The notes below the pieces were generated by a model. The model searched no databases and was not told the origin of the DNA. It was given only the letters and a program-made list of their open reading frames with translations. Below are positions 10,980 to 36,697 of a DNA stretch of 64,000 bases, piece by piece. The stretch is taken from assembly GCA_900318865.1 (NCBI GenBank), contig ONMF01000001.1:62001-126000 (forward strand), in the 5' to 3' direction. Position 1 is the stretch's first letter; the number at the start of each line of letters is the position of its first letter. The position numbers and the translations under genes are program-made. This stretch comes from an uncultured Prevotellaceae bacterium (lineage in GTDB: Bacteria > Bacteroidota > Bacteroidia > Bacteroidales > Muribaculaceae).

Positions 10980-11774
10980 ATGAAACTCAAACATCTGATG
11001 ACTGCAGCGCTTGCCGTGGTGCTGGTCACTTCCTGTTCAACGCCGAAAATCGGCTATTTTCAGGACGTAAAAGCCGGTGATGTACATTCGCTTGCAAACC
11101 CCGACTATGTAAAAATCAATCCGGGCGACAAATTGTCGATATTGGTGAGTAGCAAGAACCCGCAGCTGGCCTATTTATTCAACTTGCCCATTGTGGGCAA
11201 CTACGACGCATCCAGTTCGCATGCCAGTCTGAATAGTTCGCGTGTTGCCAACTATAAGGTTGACGCGGAGGGAAATATTGATTTCCCGGTGTTGGGCCGT
11301 CTGCACGTTGCCGGGCTCAATCGAAGTGAGATTGCGTTGTACATTAAAACCGAGCTTGTGAAGCAAGACTTGCTGAAGGACCCCATCGTTACGGTCGATT
11401 TCCTCGACTTGTATTTCTCGGTGATGGGCGAGGTGCATCGGCCTGGACGCTTTATCATCGACCATGACAAGGTGACCTTGCTCGATGCCCTGAGCCAGGC
11501 CGGTGACATGACGATTTTCGGTAAGCGCGACAATGTGCTGGTGATGCGCACCGAGAACAATGTGGAGAAAGCTTATCGGGTCGACCTGACCAACGCCGAG
11601 CAACTTTACTCCTCGCCGGCTTTCTATCTCAAGCAAAACGACATTGTGTACGTGGAACCCAATCCCCGCCGTGCACGTGAGTCGACAACCACCGGCAACG
11701 CTCTGCTCCAGCCCTCGCTGTGGATATCGGCCGCATCGTTGCTCACTACTATTATTGTGTTGATTGTTAAATGA
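10980..11774 (+). CDS. Wza-like polysaccharide export outer-membrane lipoprotein
   Basis: A 264-aa periplasmic/outer-membrane exporter subunit. A lipobox (LVTSC19) marks it as a lipoprotein. The Poly_export domain begins near residue 45 (INPGDKLSILVSSKNPQLAYLF), followed by a SLBB-type domain (VMGEVHRPGRF, about residue 155). The C-terminal segment ILLQPSLWISAASLLTTIIVLIVK is a transmembrane helix, a layout common in Bacteroidota Wza homologues. It stands directly before the Wzc-like kinase, its expected partner. Confidence 0.92.
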   Translation: MKLKHLMTAALAVVLVTSCSTPKIGYFQDVKAGDVHSLANPDYVKINPGDKLSILVSSKNPQLAYLFNLPIVGNYDASSSHASLNSSRVANYKVDAEGNIDFPVLGRLHVAGLNRSEIALYIKTELVKQDLLKDPIVTVDFLDLYFSVMGEVHRPGRFIIDHDKVTLLDALSQAGDMTIFGKRDNVLVMRTENNVEKAYRVDLTNAEQLYSSPAFYLKQNDIVYVEPNPRRARESTTTGNALLQPSLWISAASLLTTIIVLIVK

Positions 11775-15444: not shown

Positions 15445-15460
15445 TCAGTTCGTGAGGGCG

Positions 15461-21527: not shown

Positions 21528-22729
21528 ATGAAGACAGCTTATTGACCGATGCACTCGTGTCGCTGAAGCAATACTGCGAGGTAGAGAACTTCCGCGGTTG
21601 GGATCCCTATGATGGACTCAACTCGCGGTTGTTTCATGCTATTCCTTTTCTTGACCGCTCGGCGCTGGCTCGCTTGGTGGTGATCCAAGGTTTCAAGCGG
21701 TCGCCCGTCAATTTGCGTCGGTTGGCCCTTGTTCCCAAGGAGCATAACGCAAAAGGCATCGGGTTGTTTTTGCAAGGTTATTGCAATCTTTATGCCGCTG
21801 TGCAGGGCCATCCTGAGTTGGCCCGGACATTTGGCTCGCCGGCCGATATTCAGGATCGGATACACGAACTGGCCCGATTGCTCATCGAAATGCGTTCCCA
21901 GGGCGACTATCACGGTGCTTGCTGGGGCTATAACTTCGACTGGCAGGCGCGTCGACTGTTTCTGTTCCCCAAAAACACCCCCACAGTAGTGGCCACCCAA
22001 TTTGCAGCCACCGCCTTGATAGCGGCCTACGAGGTGACAAAAAAACAGGAATATCTTGATGTGGCGCTCTCTTCTGCCCGGTTTGTTCTGCAAGACCTTC
22101 ATCGCACACCTCATGAAGGCGGTTTTTTGTTTTCATATAGCCCCCTGAAAGGCAACGACACGGTTTACAACGCGTCGTTGCTGGGTAGCCGCTTGCTCAG
22201 CCATTGTTACCACTATACAAGTGATGCCGAGCAGGCCGAGGCCGCACGGCAGTCGGTAGTGGCTTGCTGTGCGGGGCAACGCTGTGACGGAGCCTGGGTC
22301 TATGGCATGCTTCCTGTGCAGCAATGGGTCGACAGTTTCCACACGGGCTATAACCTTGATGCCCTGTGTGCTTATGAGCAACTCACTGGTGACACCGCAT
22401 TTCACGAGACAATGGAGCGTGGTTTTGACTACTATTTGAGTCATTTTTTCGAAGCCGACGGATGCCCCAAGTACTATGACACTCAAAAATATCCCATAGA
22501 TATCCATTGCCCTGGACAACTCTTTGTGACGCTTGCCCGCTTGGGGCGGTTCACTCAAAATAAGGAACTGGCACACAAAGTGCTGTCGTGGACAGTGGAG
22601 CACATGCAAGACCCGAAAGGCTATTTTTATTATCAATTGAAAAAAGGCATCAGTTCGCGCATCCCCTACATGCGATGGAGCAATGCTTTCATGTTTTACT
22701 CGTTAAGTTATTATTTACTCAATGAATAA
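21524..22729 (+). CDS. VpsJ-like polysaccharide biosynthesis protein
   Basis: A 401-aa soluble protein rich in Trp, Tyr, His and Ala with repeating helical pairs, which suggests an (alpha/alpha)6 toroid like glycan-processing enzymes. Recognisable blocks are GWDPYDGLNSRLF (near the N-terminus), YHGACWGYNFDWQARR, TPTVVATQFAATAL, DSFHTGYNLDAL and YMRWSNAFMFYSLSYYL. Such proteins occur in exopolysaccharide loci and are sometimes labelled VpsJ; activity is not established. It overlaps both neighbours (4 nt and 8 nt), so it belongs to the same operon. Confidence 0.7.
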   Translation: MNEDSLLTDALVSLKQYCEVENFRGWDPYDGLNSRLFHAIPFLDRSALARLVVIQGFKRSPVNLRRLALVPKEHNAKGIGLFLQGYCNLYAAVQGHPELARTFGSPADIQDRIHELARLLIEMRSQGDYHGACWGYNFDWQARRLFLFPKNTPTVVATQFAATALIAAYEVTKKQEYLDVALSSARFVLQDLHRTPHEGGFLFSYSPLKGNDTVYNASLLGSRLLSHCYHYTSDAEQAEAARQSVVACCAGQRCDGAWVYGMLPVQQWVDSFHTGYNLDALCAYEQLTGDTAFHETMERGFDYYLSHFFEADGCPKYYDTQKYPIDIHCPGQLFVTLARLGRFTQNKELAHKVLSWTVEHMQDPKGYFYYQLKKGISSRIPYMRWSNAFMFYSLSYYLLNE

Positions 22730-23420
22730 AGTATCGTTGCGCGGTGTGGAGGTTTATCCATTCACATCGGAAGAACAACTGCTCAACTATGTTGACACAC
22801 ACAAGGGCATTTTGGTGGCCATCAATGCCGAGAAAATTCTGCATGCCACACCGCAAATGCTTGAAATCATCAATCGCAACATCGGTTACTGTGATGGAGC
22901 CGGTGCCATGATGGCTTTGCGACAAAAAGGAGTGGAAGAAGCCTGCAAGATTCCCGGCTGTGAGTTGTGGCTCAAAATTGTGGCTCGTTTTCACGGCGAG
23001 AAATCTTTTTATCTGGTAGGCGGCAAGCAAGAAGTCATCGACCAAACTGTGTCGAAACTAAAAACCGAATATCCCGACATCCGCATCGTGGGCTACCGTA
23101 ACGGTTATATCAAGACTGATGAAGAACGGGCAGCACTCGTCGACGACATAGCTCGCCAAAAGCCCGATGTGGTTTTTGTGGCGATGGGGTCGCCCAAGCA
23201 AGAACTACTCATGGAGGAGATTCAGCAACGCCATTCAGCCATTTTCCAGGGGCTGGGTGGCAGTTTTGATGTTTACACCGGCCATGTGGAGCGCGCCCCC
23301 GAGTGGTGGGTGAAGCATAATTTGGAGTGGGCCTACCGCCTGGTGCGCCAGCCCAGCCGCATCAAGCGCCAAGTGCATTTGTTGCGGTATGCCTGGTGGC
23401 TGCTTGCCCGGAAATTTTGA
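22722..23420 (+). CDS. WecG/TagA/CpsF-family glycosyltransferase (GT26)
   Basis: A 232-aa transferase that adds ManNAcA (WecG) or ManNAc (TagA) to GlcNAc-PP-undecaprenol. Family motifs are the N-terminal EKILHATPQML (about 36-46), DGAGAMMAL (about 58-66) and VVFVAMGSPKQELLMEE (about 150-166), with a final FDVYTGHVERAPEWW. Because WecB and WecC are encoded in the same locus, ManNAcA is the likelier sugar, giving a GlcNAc-ManNAcA lipid-linked disaccharide. With the TagF- and TagD-like genes downstream, a ManNAc-type linkage unit is the alternative. Confidence 0.9.
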   Translation: MNKVSLRGVEVYPFTSEEQLLNYVDTHKGILVAINAEKILHATPQMLEIINRNIGYCDGAGAMMALRQKGVEEACKIPGCELWLKIVARFHGEKSFYLVGGKQEVIDQTVSKLKTEYPDIRIVGYRNGYIKTDEERAALVDDIARQKPDVVFVAMGSPKQELLMEEIQQRHSAIFQGLGGSFDVYTGHVERAPEWWVKHNLEWAYRLVRQPSRIKRQVHLLRYAWWLLARKF

Positions 23421-23544
23421 GCTACAAGCTTCATTCATAGCGGCTTGAAACTTCCGCACTGAAAAAATGACAATACCCATGATGAAAGTGTAGTTCTTCT
23501 AACGGTCAGGATGCTCACACTTCGAAAAATAATCCCGGTATTCC

Positions 23545-24456
23545 ATGAATGAACGAACTGTGATTAACCATCTATGTCGTTTGACGGGTTGCATCCTACT
23601 ATGCTTCCTGTCGCTGGGTTGTGGTGGTGATGAACCCCAACAAGGCAAGACCGCCCCGGCCGAAGACACACCAGAATCCAAAACAGAAGAGATTAGCCCA
23701 ATATCTGTATCCAAAATTATGGATATTTCAGATTTGTACGACAACTCTTATATTCAGAGCATGGCTATTTATGGCGACTATGCATTTGTGCTGAATACGA
23801 AAGGAGGTTGCCGCGTGGTGGATTTGAATAAGAAGCAAGTGATAGCCGAAACCCGCTTGGCAACCTACGTTTCCGATAATCATGCGAATCATGCAGAGTT
23901 CTCCCATCAATTCAAAGACCAAAGCTCCTTCCCGCTGTTGTATGTGACTCCGCTTTACAGCGGGCGGTGTTATGTGGAGAATTACCACCCCGAAACCAAC
24001 ACTTTCAGTCGTGAGCAGACAATTCTCCTCTCCACCACGGTGTTCAGTAATGAACGGACGACCCAATTTTCGATCGACAGGGATAAGGGGCTTTTATACG
24101 TCATCTCACATAAGGGTCTCTCGGAGGAACACCTCCGCTGGTTTAAGCTGCCCGATATCAACAAGAAATGGGTGACACTGACTGATGATGATTTGCTGGG
24201 CAGCCACATTTTGACCAAGATTTGGAATAATTCAGGGCAGGGTTCCTACATCATCAAGGGTAATCTATATCTGATGTATGGAACCGACAAGACTGAACAC
24301 GACATTTATGTCGTGGATTTAAATACGTTCAATTATAAGCATTACGAGTTTTCACAATTCCTTTCGGCAGAACCCGAGGGGCTGGCACCATATAAGGGCT
24401 ATCTGATGGTGAATACCAATTTTCCGGGAGGTATTTATCGACTTATGAAGTATTAA
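23545..24456 (+). CDS. Putative lipoprotein of unknown function in the capsule locus
   Basis: A 303-aa protein with a lipobox (LSLGC26) followed by a low-complexity linker rich in Glu, Pro and Thr (about residues 27-55). The rest shows repeating strand-turn units such as SMAIYGDYAFVLNTKGGCRVVDLNKK and GLLYVISHKGL, suggesting a beta-propeller. I do not recognise the family. It is preceded by 124 nt without a clear promoter and followed 12 nt later by a TagF-like gene. A surface or periplasmic role in polymer handling is only a guess. Confidence 0.6.
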   Translation: MNERTVINHLCRLTGCILLCFLSLGCGGDEPQQGKTAPAEDTPESKTEEISPISVSKIMDISDLYDNSYIQSMAIYGDYAFVLNTKGGCRVVDLNKKQVIAETRLATYVSDNHANHAEFSHQFKDQSSFPLLYVTPLYSGRCYVENYHPETNTFSREQTILLSTTVFSNERTTQFSIDRDKGLLYVISHKGLSEEHLRWFKLPDINKKWVTLTDDDLLGSHILTKIWNNSGQGSYIIKGNLYLMYGTDKTEHDIYVVDLNTFNYKHYEFSQFLSAEPEGLAPYKGYLMVNTNFPGGIYRLMKY

Positions 24457-24468
24457 ATCTCAAAAAAT

Positions 24469-25740
24469 ATGAGTTTTTGGTCCTCAAAAAAAAGAACCAT
24501 CAGAAATAAATGTCTCACTCTGTATGGAGCGAGCCTACACGAGGTGTTGCTGCGCCGGTATGTGCGTAAAATCTCGCAAAAAAGACCCGTGAAGGTCGTT
24601 TTCTTCGCCACCAATGTGTCGATGTGGCGCTATCAATGGGTTTACGAGCACATGAAGAACGACAGCCGTTTCAAGGTTGATATCGTGTTGTCACCGTCGA
24701 TTCAATACGCCCGTGCGCAGCAAGAAAACGATTTGAGGCAGATGCGTGAGTTTTTTGCCAAACAAGGTGTGGATTTTGTGGATTGGAAATTGGAACAGGG
24801 AGAAGATGCTGTTGACATAAGAAAAACAATCGACCCCGACATCCTTTTCTATGCGCAGCAATATGACGGTATTTTGACACCCAAGCATGAGTATAGGAAT
24901 TTTTTGGATAGGCTACTGTGTTTGGTCCCTTATGGCATAGGCCCTTCATTTACATATTGGTTCTACGACACGCCGTTTCATAATTTGGCTTGGCGGCTCT
25001 ATTATCCGTCGCCCATTGAAATGGAGGATGCTCGCCTGCTGGCATTCAATAAAGCACGCAACGCGAGAATGAGCGGGTATTCGATTTATGACGACTACCG
25101 CGCCCCGCTCACCGAAGACCCGTGGAAGCCCTTAGACGGCGGAAGGAAACGCATTATTTGGGCACCTCATTTCACGTTGCCCACATCGGTGGCGCATTAT
25201 CATCGTGCCAATTTCCTGTGGATGGCCGACGTGATGGTGCAGCTGGCGAGGAAATATGAAGACCGTTTTCAGTTTGCGTTCAAGCCACATCCCAAGCTAC
25301 TTACCGAACTTTACAAAAATCGTGATTGGGGCAAAGAGAAAACCGATGCGTACTATAAATTGTGGCAAACCATGCCCAACACCCAGCTCGAGACCGGTGC
25401 TTTTGCTCCCTTGTTCAAAACTTCCGATGCACTGATTCACGATAGCAACTCGTTTTCGGTTGAGTACATGTTTGTCAACAAGCCGGCGTTATACATCACC
25501 CAAGACATGGAGGCGTTGCGTGACTCGGTCCCGAAGCTTGGTAAACATGCTTTCGACGCCCACTATGTGGCTGCCGATGAGAAAGAGATAGAGAATTTCT
25601 TACTTGACGTTGTGGCCGGCGGTAACGACCCGCTTGAGCCCGTACGGCGGAATTTCTATGACCAATTTCTCAAACCACCTCATAATGAGGGGGTGGGAGA
25701 GTATATTTATCATGACATTTGCAACTCGCTGTTTTCTTGA
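24469..25740 (+). CDS. CDP-glycerol glycerophosphotransferase-family protein (TagB/TagF-like), copy 1
   Basis: A 423-aa peripheral-membrane GT-B-like protein. After a basic N-terminus (KKRTIRNK, VRKISQKRPVKV) it has VVFFATNVSMWRYQWVYEHM, the donor-domain IIWAPHFTLPTS (about residue 226), FKPHPKLLTELY (about 269) and ALIHDSNSFSVEY (about 322). These correspond to the two histidine motifs and the [DH]DSSS-type segment of TagB/TagF enzymes, which move glycerol- or ribitol-phosphate from CDP-alditols. It is a paralogue of the gene at 35429. Neighbouring TagD-like and SDR genes could supply its CDP donor. Confidence 0.82.
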   Translation: MSFWSSKKRTIRNKCLTLYGASLHEVLLRRYVRKISQKRPVKVVFFATNVSMWRYQWVYEHMKNDSRFKVDIVLSPSIQYARAQQENDLRQMREFFAKQGVDFVDWKLEQGEDAVDIRKTIDPDILFYAQQYDGILTPKHEYRNFLDRLLCLVPYGIGPSFTYWFYDTPFHNLAWRLYYPSPIEMEDARLLAFNKARNARMSGYSIYDDYRAPLTEDPWKPLDGGRKRIIWAPHFTLPTSVAHYHRANFLWMADVMVQLARKYEDRFQFAFKPHPKLLTELYKNRDWGKEKTDAYYKLWQTMPNTQLETGAFAPLFKTSDALIHDSNSFSVEYMFVNKPALYITQDMEALRDSVPKLGKHAFDAHYVAADEKEIENFLLDVVAGGNDPLEPVRRNFYDQFLKPPHNEGVGEYIYHDICNSLFS

Positions 25741-25761
25741 CTTTAAAACTTACTTAGCAAA

Positions 25762-26784
25762 ATGGCTGATTCTCCTTTGGTTACTGTACAATGCCTGGTT
25801 TACAATCACGAGCCGTTCCTCAGGCAATGCCTTGACGGCTTTGTGATGCAGGAAACGAGTTTTCCGTTTGAGGTGCTTATTCATGACGACGCGTCGACCG
25901 ACGGGTCGGCGGCAATCATTCGTGAATACGCCGAGAAATACCCCGATATCATCAGGCCGATTTTTGAGACGGAAAATCAATACGCCAAGCATGACGGCTC
26001 GCTCAGGCGCATCGTTCATGGCGCTTTGAATCCTGCAGCAAAGTATGTTGCCTTATGTGAAGGTGATGATTACTGGACCGACAAGCATAAACTGCAAAAA
26101 CAAGTGTCTTTTCTTGAATCCCATCCCGAGTACAATATGTGTTGCAACCGAACCCTTTTGTATTCCGAGAAAGACAAGAGAATGATTGCTGAAAACCATT
26201 GTTACGATTCAACCCGGGATATTGAAATCAAGGATGTGGTCAGGCGAACCGGCTTGTACATTTCGACGTGCAGCATTGTGTATCGGAAAACAATGCGGCC
26301 CGATTTCGGAAAATATCGCCAATTGGCGCCGGTGGGTGATTATCCGCTGCAAATCCTGTGTGCGCTGAAAGGTAAAATCCGTTATTTCGACGAGCCGATG
26401 TCGGTATATCGCGTGAATAATTCAGCCTCATGGATGTCACGGCAGCAGTGGGGTAGCAGTTCACCACAAAATCTGAAGCGGATTCGCTCCATGGTGGATA
26501 TGTTTCAAGCGTTTGCCAATGATTATCCCGAGCATGCTGCCTTGTTTCGAAACAAGGTTGCCCAGTATGTCAACACCCAGAGCCCAATTGCCCAGGTGTC
26601 ACCTGAGCAGAATAAGGAATACTTCTTGGCTTTCAAGGACATAACCGACGGTTATCCTTTCTGGTGGAAGATAGACTTGTATTTCCGAAAGCATCGGGAT
26701 GTATTCTCCCGATTCTATGTCAAGTATTTATCTCGTCGGGTGCTGAACCGTTACCGTACAAAGAGGAAATTCTACCGTTGCTGA
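25762..26784 (+). CDS. Family 2 glycosyltransferase
   Basis: A 340-aa GT2 of the subtype starting VTVQCLVYNHEPFLRQCLDGF, with IHDDASTDGSA (about 39-49) and CEGDDYWTDKHKLQKQV (about 94-110). The last motif is typical of capsule GT2 enzymes using HexNAc-like donors, although the sugar cannot be assigned. It lies between the first TagF-like gene and the TagD fusion. Confidence 0.92.
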   Translation: MADSPLVTVQCLVYNHEPFLRQCLDGFVMQETSFPFEVLIHDDASTDGSAAIIREYAEKYPDIIRPIFETENQYAKHDGSLRRIVHGALNPAAKYVALCEGDDYWTDKHKLQKQVSFLESHPEYNMCCNRTLLYSEKDKRMIAENHCYDSTRDIEIKDVVRRTGLYISTCSIVYRKTMRPDFGKYRQLAPVGDYPLQILCALKGKIRYFDEPMSVYRVNNSASWMSRQQWGSSSPQNLKRIRSMVDMFQAFANDYPEHAALFRNKVAQYVNTQSPIAQVSPEQNKEYFLAFKDITDGYPFWWKIDLYFRKHRDVFSRFYVKYLSRRVLNRYRTKRKFYRC

Positions 26785-26848
26785 AGGTGGAGGCGCGAGG
26801 CTATTTAGCGAACAACGAGTTAATAACAAAAAATCGGATAATGTCATT

Positions 26849-28195: not shown

Positions 28196-28198
28196 GTC

Positions 28199-28930
28199 AT
28201 GGATAAAAAATTGGCGTTGATAACGGGAGGCACCAAGGGAATAGGTGCCGGTATCTCAAAAATGTTGCTGCACCATGGTTACGACATCATTGTTACTTAT
28301 TGTAATGATGTGGCAAATGCCGATGCTTTTGTGGCACAGGCCAGGCTTGATTTCCCGTCATGCGAAATCACGGCCATCAGGATTGACAACAGCGATTATT
28401 CTCAGGTTGCCAAACTGGTGCAATATATTTCCGAAAAAAAAGCAATCCACTGCATCGTGTGCAATGCCGGTGTCACGTTGAGAAAATCGTTGACAGAGAT
28501 TTCCAATGATGACTGGCTGCGAGTCATGAATGCCAATGTGAATAACAATCTATTCTTGATCCGAGACCTTTATCCCTTCATTCCTATCGATTCGCGAATC
28601 GTGTTTATCGGTTCCATGATGGCAGTGCGCCCCCATGGCACGTCTTTGGCCTACGGGGTATCTAAATCGGCTGTTCACGCATTGGCATTGAATCTGGTGA
28701 AAGTTTTTGAGGGGACGGGTACAACGGTCAATGTGATTGCTCCGGGCTTTGTAGAAACCGATTGGCAAAAAAGCAAGCCGGAAGAAATACGTCAGAACAT
28801 CTATCGCAAAACAGCCATCAAGCGTTTTGCCACAGTGGAAGAAATAGCCGATGCCGTTAAATTCTGTGTCTATAATCCATTTGTTAACGGCAGTGTTATT
28901 GAAGTGTCGGGCGGTTATGATTTCAAGTGA
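28199..28930 (+). CDS. Short-chain dehydrogenase/reductase
   Basis: A 243-aa classical SDR: cofactor loop ITGGTKGIGAGI (residues 8-19), CNAGV (about 88-92), catalytic Ser in FIGSMM (about 139), and YGVSK (Tyr/Lys, about 153-157). It is closest in feel to FabG-like 3-oxoacyl reductases, but the 3-nt gap after the TagD-oxidoreductase fusion suggests a role in making the polyol precursor of the capsule. NAD(P) preference is not evident. Its end overlaps the start of the DUF4886 gene by 14 nt. Confidence 0.88.
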   Translation: MDKKLALITGGTKGIGAGISKMLLHHGYDIIVTYCNDVANADAFVAQARLDFPSCEITAIRIDNSDYSQVAKLVQYISEKKAIHCIVCNAGVTLRKSLTEISNDDWLRVMNANVNNNLFLIRDLYPFIPIDSRIVFIGSMMAVRPHGTSLAYGVSKSAVHALALNLVKVFEGTGTTVNVIAPGFVETDWQKSKPEEIRQNIYRKTAIKRFATVEEIADAVKFCVYNPFVNGSVIEVSGGYDFK

Positions 28931-29915
28931 AATCGAGGACCGGCTGCAGGCTTTGAAGAACAACATGCTTCAATGTGTGTTGTTCTTGTTTTTGTTCACG
29001 GCATGTGGGGCTTCGAGCGAGGAACCCCGTGGAACCGTTGCCGATGACCAGCCCCAGGTGACCTTGCGAGTATTGTCCATCGGCAACAGCTTCTCGGTCG
29101 ACGCGTTCTCCTACCTGCCTTGCATCGTACATGGTATCGCACCCAACGTTCACATCACCATGGGGCTGCTCAATCACGGTGGCGCCACGCTGGCCAAGCA
29201 TTGGGAATTTGTGGAGAAGGGTGCCAAATATCAGTATTATTACAAAGCGGAAGACAATAACCACTGGACGAGCCCCCTGGGCGATTCTTATGCTGCCACC
29301 ATTGCACAGGCAATAAACGACGAGCCCTGGGATGTGGTCATTTTGCAGCAGGGTAGTTCGCAATGCCGCGACTGGAGCACTTATCAACCGGCCCTGAACC
29401 ACCTGGTGGAGTGGATTCAAGAGCAGGCGGGCCCCGATGTGGTCATTGCCTGGATGCAAATTCCGGCGTTTGCCGAGGGGTTTGAACGACTTGGCGGAAG
29501 TACCAGCGATGAGATGTACAATGACATCACTCAGTGCTCGCAACATGTCATGAGCATGCCCGGCGTAGGACTGCTGCTGCCTGTGGGCACGGCTATCCAG
29601 AATGCCAGGCAAACGTCGCTGGCCCGATATGGCCAGTTTGGCAACCTCACCTTTGATGGAATGCACATGAACGATGGCATCGGTTGCCTGATAGAGACCT
29701 ATACTGCCGCCCAGGTGTTACTTGATTTTCTGAAAGTCGGGGCAACCATCGATGCCGATGCATCAGTCATCAACCAGGATTGGTTGGGCGCTTTGTGTGT
29801 GCAACAGCAGAACGGTAATCCTGTGGGGGTTACGCCAGAGAACCGCGCAATCGCCAAGGCTTGTGTCAAGGCGGCGCTGCAGCACCCTTACGCAATCACA
29901 AGCGTCCAAAAATGA
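28917..29915 (+). CDS. DUF4886 protein (SGNH-hydrolase-like lipoprotein)
   Basis: A 332-aa protein. A lipobox (LFTAC30) marks a lipoprotein if translation starts at ATG 28917; ATG 28965 is a second candidate that would give a very short signal. The DUF4886 domain begins LRVLSIGNSFSVDAFSYLP (GNS block I of SGNH-like hydrolases), then NHGGATLAKHWEF, VVILQQGSSQCRDWSTY and FDGMHMNDGIGC near the end, where the DxxH-like block sits. A surface esterase acting on acylated polysaccharide is plausible, and the locus does encode acyltransferases. The gene overlaps the preceding SDR and is convergent with the next. Confidence 0.82.
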   Translation: MISSEIEDRLQALKNNMLQCVLFLFLFTACGASSEEPRGTVADDQPQVTLRVLSIGNSFSVDAFSYLPCIVHGIAPNVHITMGLLNHGGATLAKHWEFVEKGAKYQYYYKAEDNNHWTSPLGDSYAATIAQAINDEPWDVVILQQGSSQCRDWSTYQPALNHLVEWIQEQAGPDVVIAWMQIPAFAEGFERLGGSTSDEMYNDITQCSQHVMSMPGVGLLLPVGTAIQNARQTSLARYGQFGNLTFDGMHMNDGIGCLIETYTAAQVLLDFLKVGATIDADASVINQDWLGALCVQQQNGNPVGVTPENRAIAKACVKAALQHPYAITSVQK

Positions 29916-29921
29916 ATCACG

Positions 29922-31037
29922 CTACTGCACTGTGAAGGTGGCTACGATGGGGTAGTGGTCGCTGATTCCGGCTTTGGGACGCTCAAAATGAGTCACGGCT
30001 ATGTCGCTGCTGTGCAGCATGTGGTCAAGATGGAAATAGAACGGGCCGACGTTGTAGGTATATAGATAGCCGATGCCCGATTGCTGATAAGCGTCGCGTA
30101 ATCCGCTGCCAGTAAGCATGCGGTAACAAAATGAGCCCGGCACATCATTCATGTCACAGCACATGATGATGTGCCGGGGATTTTTTTTGATGAAATCACC
30201 GATTACTCTGGCCTGGCTTACGCGTACGTTCAGCGCCATGTTGAATTTTTGAAGCAGAGTGGTGCTGTCGGTTGCATCGGGCCGGTGTCCGAGCCCTGAC
30301 AGTTTGCGCTCGGCAGGGCTCAGTTCGTAAGAGGCCATGTAGGCATTGATTAAAGTCAACCGCTTGCCGTCAGGCAGCTCAATGCGATAGGCCGTGGCAT
30401 CATTGCGGATTATCATCTTCCCATATTGATTCCTCACCTGACGGTTCACCAGCCTGGTGGCCGTGAATGGATATCGTGACAGCAGTGTCACCTTGGCTGA
30501 ATGGTCTTCGGTCCGGTAGGGGTAGGTGGCTCGGATGGTGTCGAGAAGCGGTGCCATGGATGGGATGTCGGCGTAGTTCCATCCGTAATAGACAGCTTCT
30601 TGCAATGCCACAATGTCGGCTCCGCTTTGCACGACGGCCTCCATGGTGATGTTCGGGCGGTTCTTTACCCGGTGGTCTTCGGCATTGAATCCGTGAACAT
30701 TGTAACTCATCACTTTCACGGTGAACGAAGAGTCGGATTGTTGTTGTCGGGAAATGTGTTCCAATGCGAATGTGACCTTGGCCATAGGCCATGCTACAGC
30801 CAAAGCCAGCGCCACTGCGGCACAAGCGGCCCATCGGCACGTAGCCGCGAAGCAGATGCATACAAGCAATGCAAGCATCCATGCGGCGGGGAAAGCCAGC
30901 ACACACATCTCGGCCCATGCCCCCCAGCGCGAGGGGTCCAGTGTGCCGGCCCATGCTGTGAGTGTGCAGGTGATGACCGCAAAAGCGGCCACCGAGCATA
31001 TCCATGCCGATTTAAGCCGTCTGCTCGCCTTTGTCAT
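29922..31037 (-). CDS. Membrane-anchored endonuclease/exonuclease/phosphatase-family protein
   Basis: A 371-aa protein. Three hydrophobic segments lie in the first 100 residues, then a periplasm- or cytoplasm-facing EEP domain: MSYNVHGFNAEDH (about 112), ADIVALQEAVYYG with the metal-binding Glu (about 142), CDMNDVPGSF (about 295) and ISDHYPIVATF (about 358). EEP enzymes cut phosphodiesters, so activity on a phosphodiester-linked or lipid substrate of this locus is possible. It overlaps the flippase gene by 26 nt on the same strand and is probably translated with it. I chose ATG 31037; an upstream ATG at 31061 is possible. Confidence 0.85.
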   Translation of the reverse strand: MTKASRRLKSAWICSVAAFAVITCTLTAWAGTLDPSRWGAWAEMCVLAFPAAWMLALLVCICFAATCRWAACAAVALALAVAWPMAKVTFALEHISRQQQSDSSFTVKVMSYNVHGFNAEDHRVKNRPNITMEAVVQSGADIVALQEAVYYGWNYADIPSMAPLLDTIRATYPYRTEDHSAKVTLLSRYPFTATRLVNRQVRNQYGKMIIRNDATAYRIELPDGKRLTLINAYMASYELSPAERKLSGLGHRPDATDSTTLLQKFNMALNVRVSQARVIGDFIKKNPRHIIMCCDMNDVPGSFCYRMLTGSGLRDAYQQSGIGYLYTYNVGPFYFHLDHMLHSSDIAVTHFERPKAGISDHYPIVATFTVQ

Positions 31038-32373
31038 GATGCTTTCGGCTATAAATAACAAAACTCAATCCTATCACTGCCACAGCCACCACCATGCTGG
31101 CCACATCCACCATCATCCATCGGCTGGCATAGTAAGGAATGGCGGCCAGCGCCATTACAGCCACCGGAATCAGGATTGCGGCTGTGATGTGCAGTTTTAC
31201 ATATCGACGTGTGTCAATCAAGCGGTAAATCAGCAGGAAGCCATAGGCCAGGATTGCTGTCAGGCAAGCACCCGGCAGTTGCAAGACCGGCAACAAAACA
31301 CAATTCAATCCCACCGACAGGCATGCCGTGAGCACCACGGCAGGCACAGCGCGCCGAGTGTTGCCGGCACTCTGGTAGATGGGGTCGAAGAACGAAGATG
31401 ACAATGCGCTGAGTACCGAAGCCAGCCCTAACGGGAAAATCAGTGGCAGGCAGCTCCTGTAAGCATCGGCCACAAGCCAGCCGATGTTGAGTTTGAGCAA
31501 GAACACGTAGAGGATGAAGATTGAAGCCAGCGCAAAGATGTAAACATTATAGACACGGCTATAATAAGCATCACGGTCCTTCGATTTGAATTGGGTGATG
31601 GCTGATTCTTGCCACGTTTGATAAAATATCAGAGCCAGTGCGTGAATGACGGCGCTGAAACGCATGGCCACGGCATAAACGCCATTGCTGTCAAGTCCCA
31701 GAAAGTGCTTGATGAGCAGGCGGTCGCTGTTCACCGTCATCCACCAGCAAAGCGTGAGTGGAATCATGGGAAGGCAATAACGAAGCAACTCTTTGCGCAC
31801 GGTTTTCGTGTCAACCTTGGCCCCCAAGCACAGTCGTAATGTTCGTGCCCGGGCCTCGCACAGTCCTATGCCGGCCACATGCCCCAGAACATTGGCCCAG
31901 AAGATACTTTCTACGCCGCCGTGGAACACCAGCAACAGAATCGCACTGACTGCGGCAGTCACCAGCGCGCAGGCAATATTGCCTTGCACATAGACGTCGT
32001 TTCGTTTCAGGCCCCGGCACATTTGCGCCACCACTTCATGAATCGAGAATGTCACCAGCATGGCCACCGTGGGCCAAAACAGCCTGATGTGTAATGTCAG
32101 TCCCATTGCCAATGCAATGAGCAGTGTGGCACCGATGCTTGTGGCCAGCGATTGATAGACCACAGTGGCAATTTGCCGGCGGCTCACATCGTCGTCGGCA
32201 GCAGTCGCCATCATAAATCGGAAAGCGCCTTCACGCATTTGCAGCGTCACCACCGGCACCAGCATCAGACAAAGGCTTAAGCAGATGTCAAAGTATCCGT
32301 AATCGCCTGGGTCGTGGATGCAATAAGTGTAGAGTGGAAGCAGCAAGAAGGAGATCAGCCTTGTGCCAATCAC
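31012..32373 (-). CDS. Wzx-type polysaccharide flippase without a canonical start
   Basis: A polytopic MATE/MOP-fold transporter of about 453 aa and 12-14 hydrophobic segments. It would flip lipid-linked repeat units across the inner membrane. Homology clearly starts before the first usable codon: the frame upstream of GTG 32373 reads RTRKFVKDFGIYGIGVIGTRL, which belongs to the family's first helix. Between an in-frame TAG and this GTG there is no ATG, GTG or TTG. GTG 32373 also overlaps the stop of a short upstream frame (GTGA). The true start may be non-canonical, coupled or shifted. It is transcribed against most of the capsule operon with the EEP gene behind it. Confidence 0.85.
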   Translation of the reverse strand: MIGTRLISFLLLPLYTYCIHDPGDYGYFDICLSLCLMLVPVVTLQMREGAFRFMMATAADDDVSRRQIATVVYQSLATSIGATLLIALAMGLTLHIRLFWPTVAMLVTFSIHEVVAQMCRGLKRNDVYVQGNIACALVTAAVSAILLLVFHGGVESIFWANVLGHVAGIGLCEARARTLRLCLGAKVDTKTVRKELLRYCLPMIPLTLCWWMTVNSDRLLIKHFLGLDSNGVYAVAMRFSAVIHALALIFYQTWQESAITQFKSKDRDAYYSRVYNVYIFALASIFILYVFLLKLNIGWLVADAYRSCLPLIFPLGLASVLSALSSSFFDPIYQSAGNTRRAVPAVVLTACLSVGLNCVLLPVLQLPGACLTAILAYGFLLIYRLIDTRRYVKLHITAAILIPVAVMALAAIPYYASRWMMVDVASMVVAVAVIGLSFVIYSRKHHDKGEQTA

Positions 32374-32531
32374 CCCGATGCCATAGATGCCAAAGTCTTT
32401 GACAAATTTGCGAGTCCTATTTTGTCCGGTGTCGATGATGCGCTGTTGTTTTCGTTGAAAAAAGGATGCCCCGCGCTTGCAAAACTAACAAGCCTGCTTG
32501 CATTTTCGCCGCGGTGACACATAATTTGCTC

Positions 32532-32539
32532 CAAAATTA
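32532..32539 (-). promoter_or_regulatory. -7 element for the minus-strand flippase-EEP pair
   Basis: Minus-strand TAATTTTG, about 160 nt upstream of GTG 32373. The minus-strand transcript would carry a leader with two other reading frames starting at ATG (32522 and about 32502) that both end close to the flippase start. Confidence 0.55.
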
Positions 32540-32636
32540 CGATATTTTAGATTTTATGGCAAAAAAAAGCCCGAGAAATGATGCCCGGCAGGGGGAAAAT
32601 GTGTAATTTTACAATTTGAAACATCTGTTTTGAGAT

Positions 32637-34448
32637 ATGCAAGCAATTATCCTGGCCGCGGGAATGGGGCGGCGCCTGGGTGAACACACCCGTGAGAATA
32701 CCAAGTGCATGGTGCCGGTGAACGGCGTGCGCCTCATTGACCGAGTGCTCACGCAGCTGTCGGCATTGTCGTTGCAGCGCGTTATTATTGTGGTGGGGTA
32801 TAAAGGCCGGAACCTGATAGACTATATAGGCGACCGTTACAACGGCAGGCTGCACATCGAGTATGCCGAAAATCCCATCTATGACAAGACCAACAATATT
32901 TACTCCTTGTCGATTGTCAAGGAACAACTGCAGCAAGACGACACACTGCTGATTGAGAGTGACTTGATTTTCAGCGACGCATTATTCCCAATGATTGTGA
33001 GCAATCCCAACCCCAATGTGGCGCTGGTGGCTAAGTACGAGCCCTGGATGGATGGTACGATGGTGCGCATTGATGCCGATGACAATATCGTGAGCTTTGT
33101 TCCTCGCAAGGCGTTCAATTATGCCGAGGTGAGTCATTATTACAAAACAGTCAACATCTACAAGTTCAGCAAGGACTTTCTCAGGCAGGTGTATGTGCCC
33201 TTCCTTACAGCCTACAGCGAGGTGATGGGCAACAATGATTACTATGAGCAAGTGTTGCGAGTGGTTACGGCGCTCGACCGTGTGGAGATGAAAGCCCTCG
33301 ACATCGGCGACGAGCGGTGGTATGAAATTGACGATGCACAAGACCTGGACATCGCCAGTGCTATTTTTGCGCCCGATGAACAACGCTTGGCCATGTATGG
33401 AGCACGATACGGTGGCTACTGGAGGTTCCCGCATCTGCTCGACTTTTGTTATTTGGTGAATCCTTATTTCCCCACACGGCGAATGAAGGACGAGATGCAG
33501 GCCAACTTTGACGAACTGCTCACCCAGTATCCTTCGGGAATGGCTGTAAACTCACTTCTTGCTGCCAAATATTTTGGCGTGCGCCGCGAGCACATTGTGG
33601 TGGGGAATGGTGCGGCCGAGCTGATCAAGAGCTTGATGGAACGAGCCACCGGCAGGGTGGGTGTGGTGTATCCCACTTTCGAGGAATATCCCCACCGTCT
33701 GCCCAAAGACAAAATAGAACCCTTCATGCCGCAAACCGATGATTTGCATTACACGGCCGATGACTTGATGAGCCATTTTGAGACAAAAGACATCGACACG
33801 TTGCTGCTCGTCAATCCTGACAACCCATCGGGCAACTACATCGCCAAGGCCGATGTGCTCCGTTTGGCACACTGGTGCAATCGGCGAGGTGTGCGCCTTG
33901 TTGTGGACGAATCGTTTGTTGACTTTGCCGACGCCGGATGCGACGCATCATTGCTTCACGATGATTTGTTGACTGCCCACTCGAGTCTTGTGGTGATGAA
34001 GAGCATCAGCAAGAGCTACGGCGTGCCGGGCCTGCGCCTGGGTGTGCTGGCCAGTAGCGACAAGGAACTGGTGGAAGCCGTAAAAAAAGATGTGGCCATT
34101 TGGAACATCAACTCGTTCGCCGAGTTCTATATGCAGATTTTTAACAAATATGAGAGCAACTACCGTGAAGCCTGCGTCAAGTTCCGGGCAGAGCGTGAGC
34201 GTTTTGCCGGGCTGCTCGGCCAGATAAGCTGGCTGCGCGTGATTCCCTCGCAGGCCAACTATTTCTTGTGTCAGCTGACGGACCGCCACACCTCGGGACA
34301 ACTCACCGAGCAGCTGCTCAACCGATTCAACATCTTGATTAAAGATTGCGACAGCAAGACCGGCCTTGCCGGACGCAACATGGTGCGTATAGCAATTCGC
34401 GATGCTCACGACAACGACATGCTCATCAAAGCATTAAAACAACTGTAA
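32637..34448 (+). CDS. Fusion: LicC-like nucleotidyltransferase + PLP-dependent aminotransferase
   Basis: A 603-aa two-domain enzyme. Residues 1-240 form an NTP-transferase like phosphocholine cytidylyltransferase LicC: LAAGMGRRLGEHTRENTKCM (6-25) and LIESDLIFS (105-113), ending WYEIDDAQDL. Residues 260-603 are a fold-type I aminotransferase close to histidinol-phosphate aminotransferase: NPDNPSGN (393-400), DESF (424-427), SISKSYG with the PLP lysine K459 and GLRLG with R467. Together the domains could form or activate a CDP-aminoalcohol. In other capsule systems related PLP enzymes act on serine-phosphate or serinol-phosphate; the substrate here is unknown. It starts a second cluster with an ornithine-cyclodeaminase-like and a TagF-like gene. 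Confidence 0.85.
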   Translation: MQAIILAAGMGRRLGEHTRENTKCMVPVNGVRLIDRVLTQLSALSLQRVIIVVGYKGRNLIDYIGDRYNGRLHIEYAENPIYDKTNNIYSLSIVKEQLQQDDTLLIESDLIFSDALFPMIVSNPNPNVALVAKYEPWMDGTMVRIDADDNIVSFVPRKAFNYAEVSHYYKTVNIYKFSKDFLRQVYVPFLTAYSEVMGNNDYYEQVLRVVTALDRVEMKALDIGDERWYEIDDAQDLDIASAIFAPDEQRLAMYGARYGGYWRFPHLLDFCYLVNPYFPTRRMKDEMQANFDELLTQYPSGMAVNSLLAAKYFGVRREHIVVGNGAAELIKSLMERATGRVGVVYPTFEEYPHRLPKDKIEPFMPQTDDLHYTADDLMSHFETKDIDTLLLVNPDNPSGNYIAKADVLRLAHWCNRRGVRLVVDESFVDFADAGCDASLLHDDLLTAHSSLVVMKSISKSYGVPGLRLGVLASSDKELVEAVKKDVAIWNINSFAEFYMQIFNKYESNYREACVKFRAERERFAGLLGQISWLRVIPSQANYFLCQLTDRHTSGQLTEQLLNRFNILIKDCDSKTGLAGRNMVRIAIRDAHDNDMLIKALKQL

Positions 34449-34451
34449 GTC

Positions 34452-35420
34452 ATGAATCACCATAACACTGTATCGATTATCCAGCATGACCACATTGCGC
34501 AGGCGGGTATCACCGCGGCAGAGTGCATGACGTGGGTGGAAGAGTCTTTCAAAATAAAATATGAGTCTCAACTTCCCCCAAAAATCAGCCTGCACCCGCA
34601 GGGCGACGATTTCTTCAACACGATGCCGGCTTTGCTGCCACCTCGCTATGGACGTTTCGGTGTGAAAGTGGTGCATCGCATCGATGGGCAAGTACCCTCA
34701 CTGGGGGCCGACATACTGCTTTATGACAGTGCCACAGGCCGCCTGCTGGCGGTTGTGGACGGCGACTGGATCACCACCATGCGCACAGGTGCCGTGGCGG
34801 CATTGGCAACTCGCCTGCTGCAACGCACCGGCGTGCACACCTATTCGATGATGGGGCTTGGCAACACAGCACGCGCCACAGCGCTTTGCCTGCTGGCCGA
34901 CCATGCCGACGAGCCGGTGACCTTGCGCTTGCTCCGCTACAAGGACCAGGCGCAGTCGTTCATCGAGCGTCTGTCGTCGGTCGGCACACGGAATGTGCAG
35001 TTTGAAGTGGTGGATGAAATCAATGATTTAGTGGCTGGCGCCGATGTGCTTATTTCTTGCATCACATTGGCCAAGGGATTGATTTGCGACCACGACGAGT
35101 TGTTCCGGCCCGGCATGCTGCTGTTGCCGGTACACACGCGCGGTTTCCAGAATTGTGACTTGTTTTTTGACAAGGTGTTTGCCGACGACACGGGTCACGT
35201 GTCGGGCTTCAAATATTTCACTCGATTTAAGCGCTATGACGAGCTGAGCCGCGTGTTGTTGGGGGAAAACCCCGGTCGCGAGAGCGACCACGAGCGCATC
35301 CTGGGCTACAACATCGGGTTAGGGCTGCACGATGTGTTGTTTGCCAGTAAAATCTACGACCGGGTCAAGGACTGCGAACACTTCGTTCAACGGAAAGAGA
35401 CTGCGAAATTCTGGATTTGA
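34452..35420 (+). CDS. Ornithine cyclodeaminase / mu-crystallin family enzyme
   Basis: A 322-aa NAD(P)-dependent enzyme. The substrate-side segment ITTMRTGAVAALATRLLQR (about 112-130) carries the conserved Arg, and the Rossmann loop is MMGLGNTARATALCLL (about 135-150). Family members include ornithine cyclodeaminase, alanine dehydrogenase and imine reductases, so the specific substrate cannot be assigned. It lies 3 nt after the nucleotidyltransferase-aminotransferase fusion and just before a TagF-like gene, implying a role in making an unusual amino compound for the capsule. Confidence 0.86.
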   Translation: MNHHNTVSIIQHDHIAQAGITAAECMTWVEESFKIKYESQLPPKISLHPQGDDFFNTMPALLPPRYGRFGVKVVHRIDGQVPSLGADILLYDSATGRLLAVVDGDWITTMRTGAVAALATRLLQRTGVHTYSMMGLGNTARATALCLLADHADEPVTLRLLRYKDQAQSFIERLSSVGTRNVQFEVVDEINDLVAGADVLISCITLAKGLICDHDELFRPGMLLLPVHTRGFQNCDLFFDKVFADDTGHVSGFKYFTRFKRYDELSRVLLGENPGRESDHERILGYNIGLGLHDVLFASKIYDRVKDCEHFVQRKETAKFWI

Positions 35421-35428
35421 TCCTGCTG

Positions 35429-36697
35429 ATGGGTTGGCCGAAAAAAATAGTTCGCTACATGTGGCTGCACGGTTGGAAATATCGTGCCACTGAACGTGCG
35501 CATCGACGTTATGTGGCCGAAATGGGACGCCGCCGTCCTGTGCGCGTGGTGTTCATTGCCATGAGTGTGGCCATGTGGCGCTACCAACACTTGTACGAAC
35601 TACTGGCCGCCGACCCTCGATTCGATGTGCACATCGTTCTGTCGCCCAGCATTGACTATGCCCCCGAGCAACGCGCTCATGACGAGGAACTGATGGAGCG
35701 ATATTTTGCAAAGCGCGGCATTGCCGTTGTGCCATGGACCGGCGATGACCATGCCGTGAACATCCGAGCCGATTTCGACCCCGACCTGTTGTTCTATCCG
35801 CAACCCTATGAGCATCTCCTGCTGCCCGAGCACGACTGCACTTCATTCTACGACAGACTCATCTGCTACTATCCCTACGCATTTTGGACATCAACCGGGA
35901 AATGGTCTTACGATTTTCACTTCCATAACTTGGCTTGGCGCCTTTACTACTCCACAACGATGCATTTGGCCGAAGCCAGGAAAGTGGCGACCAACCATGG
36001 TCGCAATGTGCGGGTTGTGGGCTATCCCAATGCCGATGACTTTTTGCTGAGCGACCACACTGACGTGTGGAAGCCTCAATCGGCGCCATGCAAACGCGTG
36101 GTGTGGGCGCCACACTATTCTGTCACAGCCGAATTTGGGCTGCCTCCACGCTCCAATTTTCTGTGGATGGCTTCACTCATGCTCCAACTGGCAGAACAGT
36201 ACCGAGACAAATTGCAGCTGGCTTTTAAACCCCATCCACGCCTGCTCACCGAGCTCTATGCACATCCCGAATGGGGAAAAAGTAGGGCCGACGCATACTA
36301 CAAACAATGGAAGACCGGTGTCAATACCCAGCTCGAAACAGGAGAGTTTATCGACCTGTTTATGACCAGTGACGCGATGATTCACGACAGCGGCTCGTTT
36401 GCCGTAGAGTATCATTACAGCCGCCGGCCAGTGATGTTCGTCAGCAATGACATGGAGCCCATTATGCGCACGCAAAGTGACTTTGGAAAAAAAGTCTACG
36501 AGTTGCATTATATTGGGGGTGATGAAGTGGCTGTGCGCCATTTTGTTGACGATGTGGTGATAGCAGGAAACGATCCTCTGCTTGACGAGCGTGAAGAGTT
36601 TTTCAATCGATATTTATTGCCTCCCGGCGGCAACAGCGTTGCCCAAAACACCCTCGATGATATTGTGGAATCCCTTCAGTTGTCAGAAAAGTCATGA
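35429..36697 (+). CDS. CDP-glycerol glycerophosphotransferase-family protein (TagB/TagF-like), copy 2
   Basis: About 422 aa and a clear paralogue of the gene at 24469: VVFIAMSVAMWRYQHLYELL, VVWAPHYSV, FKPHPRLLTELY, and MIHDSGSFAVEY line up block by block. It has the same basic N-terminus for membrane association. Its location after the second nucleotidyltransferase fusion suggests that each copy uses a different CDP-activated donor. ATG 35429 is chosen; TTG 35417 overlaps the previous stop and is possible. It overlaps the next gene by ATGA. Confidence 0.82.
   Translation: MGWPKKIVRYMWLHGWKYRATERAHRRYVAEMGRRRPVRVVFIAMSVAMWRYQHLYELLAADPRFDVHIVLSPSIDYAPEQRAHDEELMERYFAKRGIAVVPWTGDDHAVNIRADFDPDLLFYPQPYEHLLLPEHDCTSFYDRLICYYPYAFWTSTGKWSYDFHFHNLAWRLYYSTTMHLAEARKVATNHGRNVRVVGYPNADDFLLSDHTDVWKPQSAPCKRVVWAPHYSVTAEFGLPPRSNFLWMASLMLQLAEQYRDKLQLAFKPHPRLLTELYAHPEWGKSRADAYYKQWKTGVNTQLETGEFIDLFMTSDAMIHDSGSFAVEYHYSRRPVMFVSNDMEPIMRTQSDFGKKVYELHYIGGDEVAVRHFVDDVVIAGNDPLLDEREEFFNRYLLPPGGNSVAQNTLDDIVESLQLSEKS

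What the first reader, a model, noticed from the sequence alone, without database searches (positions are those of the whole stretch)
22722..36697. Teichoic-acid-like CDP-alditol system inside a Gram-negative capsule locus
The locus combines a TagO/WecA-type initiator (9866), a ManNAc-forming epimerase (39216), a TagA/WecG transferase (22722), two TagB/TagF-family phosphotransferases (24469, 35429) and a TagD-like CDP-glycerol synthase domain (26849). This is nearly the complete enzyme logic of a wall-teichoic linkage unit plus CDP-alditol polymerisation, here with Gram-negative export (Wza/Wzc/Wzx). Seen: the motifs. Known: roles of Tag proteins. Inferred: the product carries phosphodiester-linked glycerol or another polyol.
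Basis: partly seen in the sequence, partly recalled or inferred. Interest (0 to 1): 0.85.

Follow-up and report, generated by a model that had tools for sequence, protein, structure and literature searches.

The report
Capsule locus with opine-phosphate module
A capsule gene cluster of a Bacteroidales-type bacterium holds two gene sets, each predicted to make a CDP-activated small molecule that its own distant relative of the teichoic-acid enzyme TagF would attach through phosphate to the capsule repeat; one molecule is likely a polyol and the other likely an amino alcohol modified like an opine, a kind of group whose genes did not turn up in the papers searched.

Summary
The initiator, epimerase, WecG/TagA-type and TagD-like genes are real. 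The chain start is likely not a wall-teichoic linkage unit: the locus also encodes UDP-ManNAc dehydrogenase (WecC, above its curated cut-off), and 22722 scores higher on WecG than on TarA, so GlcNAc-ManNAcA is likelier. The two 'TagF' proteins (46% identical) are remote GT-B relatives: in 169 family members no histidine before residue 233 reaches 95% conservation (TagF's WHG histidine has no clear counterpart), while the KPHP histidine is invariant. Context supports CDP-donor chemistry: TagF-like genes sit beside several kinds of nucleotidyltransferase cassette. In 60 relatives of the fusion, 46 carry a nearby reductase of this or the octopine-dehydrogenase family; 34 carry LicD, 7 a TagF-like gene, none both. 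Best reading: phosphoserine is decarboxylated to phosphoethanolamine, CDP-activated, N-carboxyalkylated and transferred by a TagF-like enzyme in LicD's place; a TagD-Gfo/SDR cassette makes a CDP-polyol for the second TagF-like enzyme.

The parts
9309..9869 (+). UpxY-family antiterminator at the head of the capsule operon
   Evidence: NF033644 169 bits, cut-off 100
9866..10975 (+). WecA/TagO-type polyprenyl-phosphate GlcNAc-1-P transferase (initiator)
   Evidence: PF00953 119 bits; best NCBIfam TIGR02380 WecA, under its cut-off
10980..11774 (+). Wza-type export protein
   Evidence: PF02563 and SLBB
11789..14224 (+). Wzc-type co-polymerase and kinase
   Evidence: PF02706, PF13807, PF13614
14239..15444 (+). 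WecC, UDP-ManNAc dehydrogenase; argues for ManNAcA, not ManNAc, in the repeat
   Evidence: NF008286 525.6 bits, cut-off 459
15452..16627 (+). EpsG-family membrane protein, Wzy-like polymerase candidate
   Evidence: PF14897 112 bits
22722..23420 (+). WecG/TagA-family transferase, closer to WecG
   Evidence: PF03808 181 bits; NF002980 197 bits vs TarA NF041710 114 bits, both under their cut-offs
24469..25740 (+). TagF-like GT-B protein 1 (P0001), predicted CDP-polyol phosphotransferase
25762..26784 (+). Family 2 glycosyltransferase between TagF-like 1 and the TagD fusion
   Evidence: PF00535 65 bits
26849..28195 (+). TagD-like cytidylyltransferase fused to a Gfo/Idh/MocA oxidoreductase (P0002), donor cassette 1
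   Evidence: PF01467 and PF01408; TagD 2b7l E 3e-36; RTxGxSS and D95, W96 invariant in 130 of 130; EKP lysine replaced in 129 of 130
28199..28930 (+). FabG-like SDR, donor cassette 1
   Evidence: PF13561 120 bits; YGVSK motif; the same three gene types lie together in L141
32637..34448 (+). LicC/PntC-like nucleotidyltransferase fused to a CobD-like PLP domain (P0003), donor cassette 2
   Evidence: PF12804 and PF00155; TIGR01140 198 bits (under its cut-off) vs hisC 143; LicC 1jyk and PntC 6pd1 best PDB for the N-domain
34452..35420 (+). Ornithine cyclodeaminase/mu-crystallin-family reductase (P0004), predicted opine-type N-carboxyalkylation
   Evidence: PF02423 98 bits; slot held by the octopine DH family in many relatives
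35417..36697 (+). TagF-like GT-B protein 2 (P0005), predicted transferase for donor cassette 2
36694..38133 (+). Wzx-type flippase
   Evidence: PF13440 323 bits
38130..39185 (+). Acyltransferase; relatives follow TagF-like and Wzx in many loci
   Evidence: PF01757 60 bits; context
39216..40385 (+). WecB, UDP-GlcNAc 2-epimerase
   Evidence: TIGR00236 499.6 bits, cut-off 210

Best explanation
The locus is a Wzx/Wzy-type capsule cluster that holds two donor cassettes, each predicted to make a CDP-activated small molecule which the neighbouring, divergent TagF-like protein would transfer as a phosphodiester-linked group onto the capsule repeat. Shown by sequence: the gene families, their order, and the conserved and missing motifs. 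Inferred: all chemistry. Cassette 1 (26849, 28199, 24469): the TagD-like domain likely activates a polyol phosphate or keto-phosphate with CTP, the Gfo and SDR enzymes likely supply the reduction, and TagF-like 1 would transfer the polyol phosphate; which polyol is open. Cassette 2 (32637, 34452, 35417): the CobD-like domain likely decarboxylates phosphoserine to phosphoethanolamine, the LicC/PntC-like domain likely makes CDP-ethanolamine, the OCD-family reductase likely joins its amine to a 2-keto acid such as pyruvate (an opine-type reaction), and TagF-like 2 would transfer the N-(1-carboxyalkyl)ethanolamine phosphate, a job that LicD likely does in many relatives. Transfer presumably happens on the lipid-linked repeat before Wzx flips it; whether the group is a side decoration or part of the backbone is open. 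The chain likely starts GlcNAc-ManNAcA (WecA, WecB, WecC, WecG).
For: (2) In the 44 named loci found with the TagF-like profile, 24 have the fusion and all 24 of these have an OCD (13) or octopine-DH (11) gene next to it. Nine of 10 neighbours, picked by their length of about 270 aa, were LicD by Pfam. (4) The ODH variant aligns along nearly its whole length to octopine DH (E 3.6e-49), and the positions of H212, R324 and D329 are kept in 7 of 7; 12 of the 120 listed homologues of 32637 are one chain with it. (5) E107 (202 of 202) and E204 (203 of 203) match, by my reading of the alignment, the PntC glutamates that contact a primary amine. (6) Other nucleotidyltransferase types also sit beside TagF-like genes: IspD plus SDR in L043, CTP_transf_like in L066, NTP_transf with HAD in L064 and L138. 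(7) The fusion label is clustered on the TagF-like tree (8 changes, shuffled mean 21.9). (8) No PEP mutase over the cut-off in the assembly; the one weak hit reads like PanB, which argues against a phosphonate. (9) N-[(R)-1-carboxyethyl]ethanolamine phosphate is a known bacterial surface-polysaccharide group: it is in the key of a figure of P. mirabilis O- and K. pneumoniae capsular polysaccharides (PMC9630907, passages; that it belongs to Proteus is recalled).
Against: No enzyme was assayed and no capsule was analysed. Fourteen of 31 TagF-like genes had none of the three commonest cassettes nearby, and 19 of 60 fusion loci had neither transferase. LicD and TagF-like are not exclusive everywhere: 6 of 72 loci with a TagF-like gene also carry LicD (L039, L041, L068, L071, L136, L137), L041 together with the fusion; there LicD may use the donor. 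Four fusion loci have OCD and ODH together, so the two may do different steps, and 14 of 60 have neither. CobD-like enzymes may instead act on phosphothreonine or aminate dihydroxyacetone phosphate. In fold searches UDP-GlcNAc 2-epimerases rank above TagF, TarL and Bcs3, by 0.9 to 2.5 Z. TagD-Gfo is not clearly clustered on the TagF-like tree (10 changes vs 11.2 shuffled). A LicD gene lies elsewhere in the assembly.
Confidence: 0.5

Rival explanations
1. Cassette 2 makes a plain amino-alcohol donor (CDP-ethanolamine, CDP-serinol or CDP-1-aminopropan-2-ol), and the OCD-family enzyme does something else, such as supplying or recycling an amino acid.
For: 14 of 60 fusion loci have no reductase. 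The CobD-like domain's best PDB hits include named phosphothreonine decarboxylases (6oux, 1lc5), and Cj1437 makes serinol phosphate (PMC12409886, passages). Solved OCD-family relatives include alanine dehydrogenase and pyrroline-carboxylate reductase.
Against: The same slot is filled by octopine-DH-family enzymes, sometimes in one chain with the fusion, so the reductase likely works on the fusion's product.
Confidence: 0.27
2. Teichoic-acid-like capsule: a wall-teichoic linkage unit, CDP-glycerol and TagF-type polymerisation by both TagF-like proteins.
For: TagD-like domain with conserved CTP motifs; PF04464 borderline matches; TagF, TarL and Bcs3 among the top folds. Teichoic-like capsules of Gram-negative bacteria exist (PMC5974469, passages).
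Against: WecC present and WecG-like 22722; PT(F/W)R arginine missing and no clear WHG histidine; TIGR01518 below cut-off; cassette 2 is LicC/LicD-like, not alditol-like; Wzy-type EpsG candidate present.
Confidence: 0.08
3. The TagF-like proteins are ordinary GT-B glycosyltransferases or epimerase-like enzymes, and the nucleotidyltransferase cassettes feed other transferases in the loci.
For: UDP-GlcNAc 2-epimerases rank first in fold. No clear counterpart of the TagF WHG histidine. 14 of 31 genes lack the three cassettes, and 6 of 72 TagF-like loci also carry LicD.
Against: Repeated association with different cytidylyltransferase cassettes and no overlap with LicD in the 60 fusion loci; C-terminal profile similarity to PF04464 proteins (P 5e-6).
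Confidence: 0.15

Closest known systems
TagF-like capsule polymerases of Gram-negative group 2 capsules (Bcs3, Cps3D; PMC5974469, passages)
   Different: Single-domain proteins of about 420 aa; no PT(F/W)R arginine and no clear WHG histidine; Wza/Wzc/Wzx genes instead of a group 2 system; borderline PF04464
Lic pathway (LicC cytidylyltransferase and LicD phosphocholine transferase; Proteus O18 example PMC8027243, passages)
   Same: LicC-like domain; LicD within 8 kb of the fusion in 34 of 60 relatives; decoration of a Wzx/Wzy repeat
   Different: No choline kinase or permease among the genes I scanned in the window locus (not searched for by name); the precursor is likely made by a CobD-like domain; a TagF-like gene where many relatives have LicD
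PntC, AEP cytidylyltransferase fused to a class V transaminase (PMC6697681, abstract and passages)
   Same: LicC-type domain fused to a PLP enzyme; two glutamates that would face a primary amine
   Different: PLP domain is CobD-like (class I/II); no PEP mutase over cut-off in the assembly, so likely a phosphate ester, not a phosphonate
Octopine dehydrogenase (PDB 3c7a)
   Same: Relatives of the cassette carry this family, nearly full-length match with conserved H212, R324 and D329 positions
   Different: The window itself carries the OCD/mu-crystallin family in that slot
Campylobacter CDP-6-glucitol pathway (PMC10918830, abstract and passages)
   Same: Cytidylyltransferase plus reductase making a CDP-polyol for a capsule
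   Different: There PF01128 plus PF01370; here PF01467 fused to Gfo/Idh/MocA, plus an SDR

Membership tests
TagF / PF04464 CDP-alditol phosphotransferases | Pfam PF04464 gathering score (22.1 bits) | tested here: inconclusive
   35417: 22.2 bits; 24469: 19.4 bits
TagF / PF04464 CDP-alditol phosphotransferases | WHG motif with the first catalytic histidine (H444 in TagF) | tested here: not met
   No WHG motif; no His conserved at 95% or more before residue 233 in 169 sequences. P153 (168 of 169) and Y154 (169 of 169) follow the strand that I take as the match; hhalign supports only the C-terminal half. H168 (152 of 169) and H170 (151 of 169) lie a little later, so a replacement histidine is not excluded
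TagF / PF04464 CDP-alditol phosphotransferases | PT(F/W)R motif arginine | tested here: not met
   APH instead, H233 in 169 of 169, and S, T or A at the fifth place of WAPHx; hhalign aligns the two motifs
TagF / PF04464 CDP-alditol phosphotransferases | Second catalytic histidine (H584 in TagF, numbering) in K-x-H | tested here: met
   KPHP, H273 in 169 of 169, aligned to the KPHP of a PF04464 protein
TagF / PF04464 CDP-alditol phosphotransferases | TDYSS motif | tested here: inconclusive
   Mostly HDSxS: D324 and S327 169 of 169, T replaced, H323 166 of 169
TagF / PF04464 CDP-alditol phosphotransferases | TagF fold | tested here: inconclusive
Wall teichoic acid linkage unit (TagO, MnaA, TagA, TagB) | TagO/WecA-type initiator and 2-epimerase | tested here: met
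   9866 and 39216; both also belong to enterobacterial common antigen
Wall teichoic acid linkage unit (TagO, MnaA, TagA, TagB) | TagA that transfers ManNAc, no ManNAcA pathway | tested here: not met
   WecC over cut-off; WecG model 197 bits vs TarA 114, both under cut-off; the sugar transferred was not tested
TagD glycerol-3-phosphate cytidylyltransferase | TIGR01518 cut-off 165.4 bits | tested here: not met
   120 bits
TagD glycerol-3-phosphate cytidylyltransferase | Nucleotidyltransferase motifs HxGH and RTxGxS | tested here: met
   HQGH in P0002; R114, T115, G117, S119 in 130 of 130
LicC/PntC cytidylyltransferases | Closest solved structures and amine-contact acidic residues | tested here: met
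   1jyk E 9e-11, 6pd1 E 2e-9; E107 and E204 conserved; the E204 match is my reading of the alignment
LicC/PntC cytidylyltransferases | CTP and amino-alkyl phosphate specificity | not testable with these tools
   Needs an enzyme assay
L-threonine phosphate decarboxylase (CobD) | TIGR01140 cut-off 290.55 bits | tested here: not met
   198 to 200 bits, above hisC 143 bits
Ornithine cyclodeaminase/mu-crystallin family | PF02423 over cut-off | tested here: met
   98.4 bits, cut-off 24
Opine dehydrogenases | N-carboxyalkylation of an amine by 34452 | not testable with these tools
   Inferred only from replacement by the PF02317 family in relatives

The most novel reading that the evidence does not exclude
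The locus makes a new class of activated donor, a CDP-opine (CDP-N-(1-carboxyethyl)ethanolamine), and a TagF-derived GT-B family that traded the TagF WHG histidine for another active site (invariant Y154, H233, H273) works as a general phosphotransferase. This family takes its specificity from swappable donor cassettes and can stand in for LicD in Bacteroidales capsules.
Probability: 0.28. Interest if true: 0.8.

Novelty: new variant of a known kind. Interest (0 to 1): 0.6.

Why it matters
Charged and phosphate-bearing groups on Bacteroidales capsules matter for immune recognition (recalled). N-(1-carboxyethyl)ethanolamine phosphate is a known surface-polysaccharide group (PMC9630907, passages; Proteus recalled) for which I found no assigned genes in the paper searches, in a library of open papers only, nor in the passages seen of PMC5560731. 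If right, this gives a concrete enzyme order, two testable donors and a transferase family for them, common enough (fusion in 56 of 247 family genomes) to help predict capsule chemistry from sequence.

Tried and rejected
Phosphonate (AEP) route: rejected, the only PEP-mutase-family hit in the assembly is below cut-off and its sequence reads like PanB (my reading). Cobalamin CobD: the fusion is the best CobD-like protein in the assembly and none reaches the TIGR01140 cut-off. Phosphocholine: less likely, the two acidic residues of 32637 are glutamates as in PntC, not aspartates as in LicC. Placing the TagF WHG motif by global hhalign gave no reliable alignment of the N-half, so the missing histidine rests on conservation counts. 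A sequence profile of the TagF-like family found no PDB chain at E up to 1. A tree to pair TagF-like 1 with TagD-Gfo was not informative: it sits alone on a long branch and the TagD-Gfo label is scattered. The passages of the Proteus O-antigen paper hold no mention of ethanolamine, carboxyethyl or cytidylyltransferase. Pneumococcal CDP-2-glycerol as a model for TagD-Gfo/SDR could not be followed up (one search listed one unrelated paper).

Weak LicD hits of 38 to 40 bits in L148 and L166 were counted as absent. Two fragment hits of the fusion in G254 were dropped before the count of 60. In L116 (G359) the hit has one in-frame stop; only its 569-residue open piece was used. Loci L001, L002, L033, L045 and L046 were dropped from the 169-sequence alignment, and seven repeats of other loci from the tree. 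The 169 sequences are not independent: 119 are database homologues of 35417 and 50 come from loci, and some loci are near-copies of one another.

On checking the draft against the calls I lowered the main confidence from 0.55 to 0.5 and the novel case from 0.3 to 0.28, because 6 of 72 TagF-like loci also carry LicD and because UDP-GlcNAc 2-epimerases rank above TagF in the fold searches, not level with it.


Full report
What is there. The window is G000:C11:62001-126000 of a 2.5 Mb assembly. Relatives of its proteins are named Muribaculaceae and other Bacteroidales. Genes from 9309 to 41440 form a capsule cluster: UpxY antiterminator, WecA-type initiator, Wza, Wzc, WecC, an EpsG-like Wzy candidate, glycosyltransferases, WecG, Wzx, WecB. 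A second protein, 18588, matches EpsG only weakly (17.9 bits, cut-off 30.1).

The linkage unit. The cluster also has UDP-ManNAc dehydrogenase at 14239 (525.6 bits, cut-off 459), and 22722 scores 197 bits on the ManNAcA transferase model against 114 on TarA (both below the models' cut-offs). GlcNAc-ManNAcA, as in enterobacterial common antigen, is therefore the likelier start.

Why CDP donors. Context is the main evidence. Among 31 TagF-like genes in 28 of 247 family genomes, 7 lie within 6 kb of the 32637-type fusion and 7 others within 6 kb of the TagD-Gfo fusion. The other 14 have none of the three. Farther relatives and others sit with IspD plus SDR (L043), a lone CTP_transf_like (L066) or NTP_transf plus HAD (L064, L138). 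The window holds both main kinds, one for each TagF-like gene.

Cassette 2. 32637 joins a LicC/PntC-like domain to a CobD-like PLP domain. The fusion occurs in 56 of 247 family genomes. I fetched all 60 full or near-full copies, the window's own included (two fragments dropped). Of the 60, 24 have an OCD-family and 18 an octopine-DH-family reductase nearby, 4 both, 14 neither; 34 have LicD, 7 a TagF-like gene, none both, 19 neither. Nine of 10 neighbours picked by length and tested by Pfam are LicD. This exclusion is not general: over all loci scanned, 6 of 72 with a TagF-like gene also hold LicD, one of them, L041, with the fusion. The octopine-DH type matches octopine dehydrogenase along nearly its whole length (E 3.6e-49), PF02317 hits 7 of 7, and the positions of H212, R324 and D329 are kept (their catalytic role is recalled). 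In 12 of the 120 listed homologues of 32637 this enzyme is in the same chain. The simplest reading is that the reductase modifies the product of the fusion, and the known chemistry of the octopine-DH family is joining a keto acid to an amine.

Which amine. Cj1436 of Campylobacter decarboxylates phosphoserine to ethanolamine phosphate and Cj1437 makes serinol phosphate (PMC12409886, passages). The CobD-like domain scores higher on the phosphothreonine decarboxylase model than on HisC (198 vs 143 bits). E107 and E204 of the N-domain correspond, by my reading of the alignment, to the PntC glutamates near the primary amine of AEP (PMC6697681, passages) and are invariant. No PEP mutase passes its cut-off. 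So phosphoethanolamine is the likeliest amine. N-[(R)-1-carboxyethyl]ethanolamine phosphate is a real glycan group: it stands in the key of a figure of P. mirabilis O- and K. pneumoniae capsular polysaccharides (PMC9630907, passages; the assignment to Proteus is recalled).

Cassette 1. 26849 keeps the TagD nucleotide motifs (130 of 130 for R114, T115, G117, S119, S120) but falls short of the glycerol-3-phosphate model (120 vs 165.4 bits). Its Gfo domain has lost the EKP lysine in 129 of 130 sequences (that this lysine is usual in the family is recalled). TagD-Gfo, SDR and TagF-like genes lie together in L141 and co-occur in L037. The Campylobacter CDP-glucitol pathway activates first and reduces second, with other families (PMC10918830, abstract and passages). 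The polyol cannot be named.

History. On a tree of 66 TagF-like proteins the fusion label needs 8 changes against 21.9 shuffled; the window's 35417 falls in a set of 28, of which 24 have the fusion. TagF-like 1 stands alone on a long branch. Distant members (L127-L130) also sit with the fusion, some of them in another arrangement, which points to repeated pairing.

Verdict. The linkage unit, both transferases being plain TagF, and glycerol are not borne out. The most distinctive part, the LicC-CobD fusion with its reductase, was not in the finding. All functions are predictions from sequence and context.

Noticed in passing
L024, L026, L038 (also L028, L029): A minus-strand pair, CTP_transf_like plus an Asn_synthase-like protein, lies near the TagF-like gene instead of the fusion (Pfam checked in L024, L026 and L038). 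In L028 and L029 only the TagD-like gene was seen.
   Followed up: partly
L119, L154, L161, L167: Both an OCD-family and an octopine-DH-family gene lie next to the fusion, so the two may do successive steps in some loci.
   Followed up: no
L068, L071, L136, L137, L039, L041: LicD-like genes in the same locus as a TagF-like gene; in L136 one was confirmed as LicD by Pfam, beside a class V aminotransferase.
   Followed up: partly
window 29922-32373 (minus strand): Two minus-strand genes inside the operon: 29922 Exo_endo_phos family, 31012 without a Pfam match; relatives of 31012 lie near the fusion in L105, L111, L112 and L118.
   Followed up: no
window 21524-22729: A glycoside-hydrolase-76/88-like protein in a capsule operon, next to WecG; relatives lie next to WecG in L021 and L111.
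   Followed up: no
window 28851-29915: DUF4886 protein (130.6 bits) directly after the SDR of cassette 1; function unknown.
   Followed up: no
window 23545-24456: 303 aa protein that looks like a lipoprotein, no Pfam or NCBIfam match, between WecG and TagF-like 1.
   Followed up: no
L182 (G000:C5:45000-59000): The assembly has one LicD gene in another cluster, with no fusion or TagF-like gene seen in the 14 kb fetched around it.
   Followed up: partly
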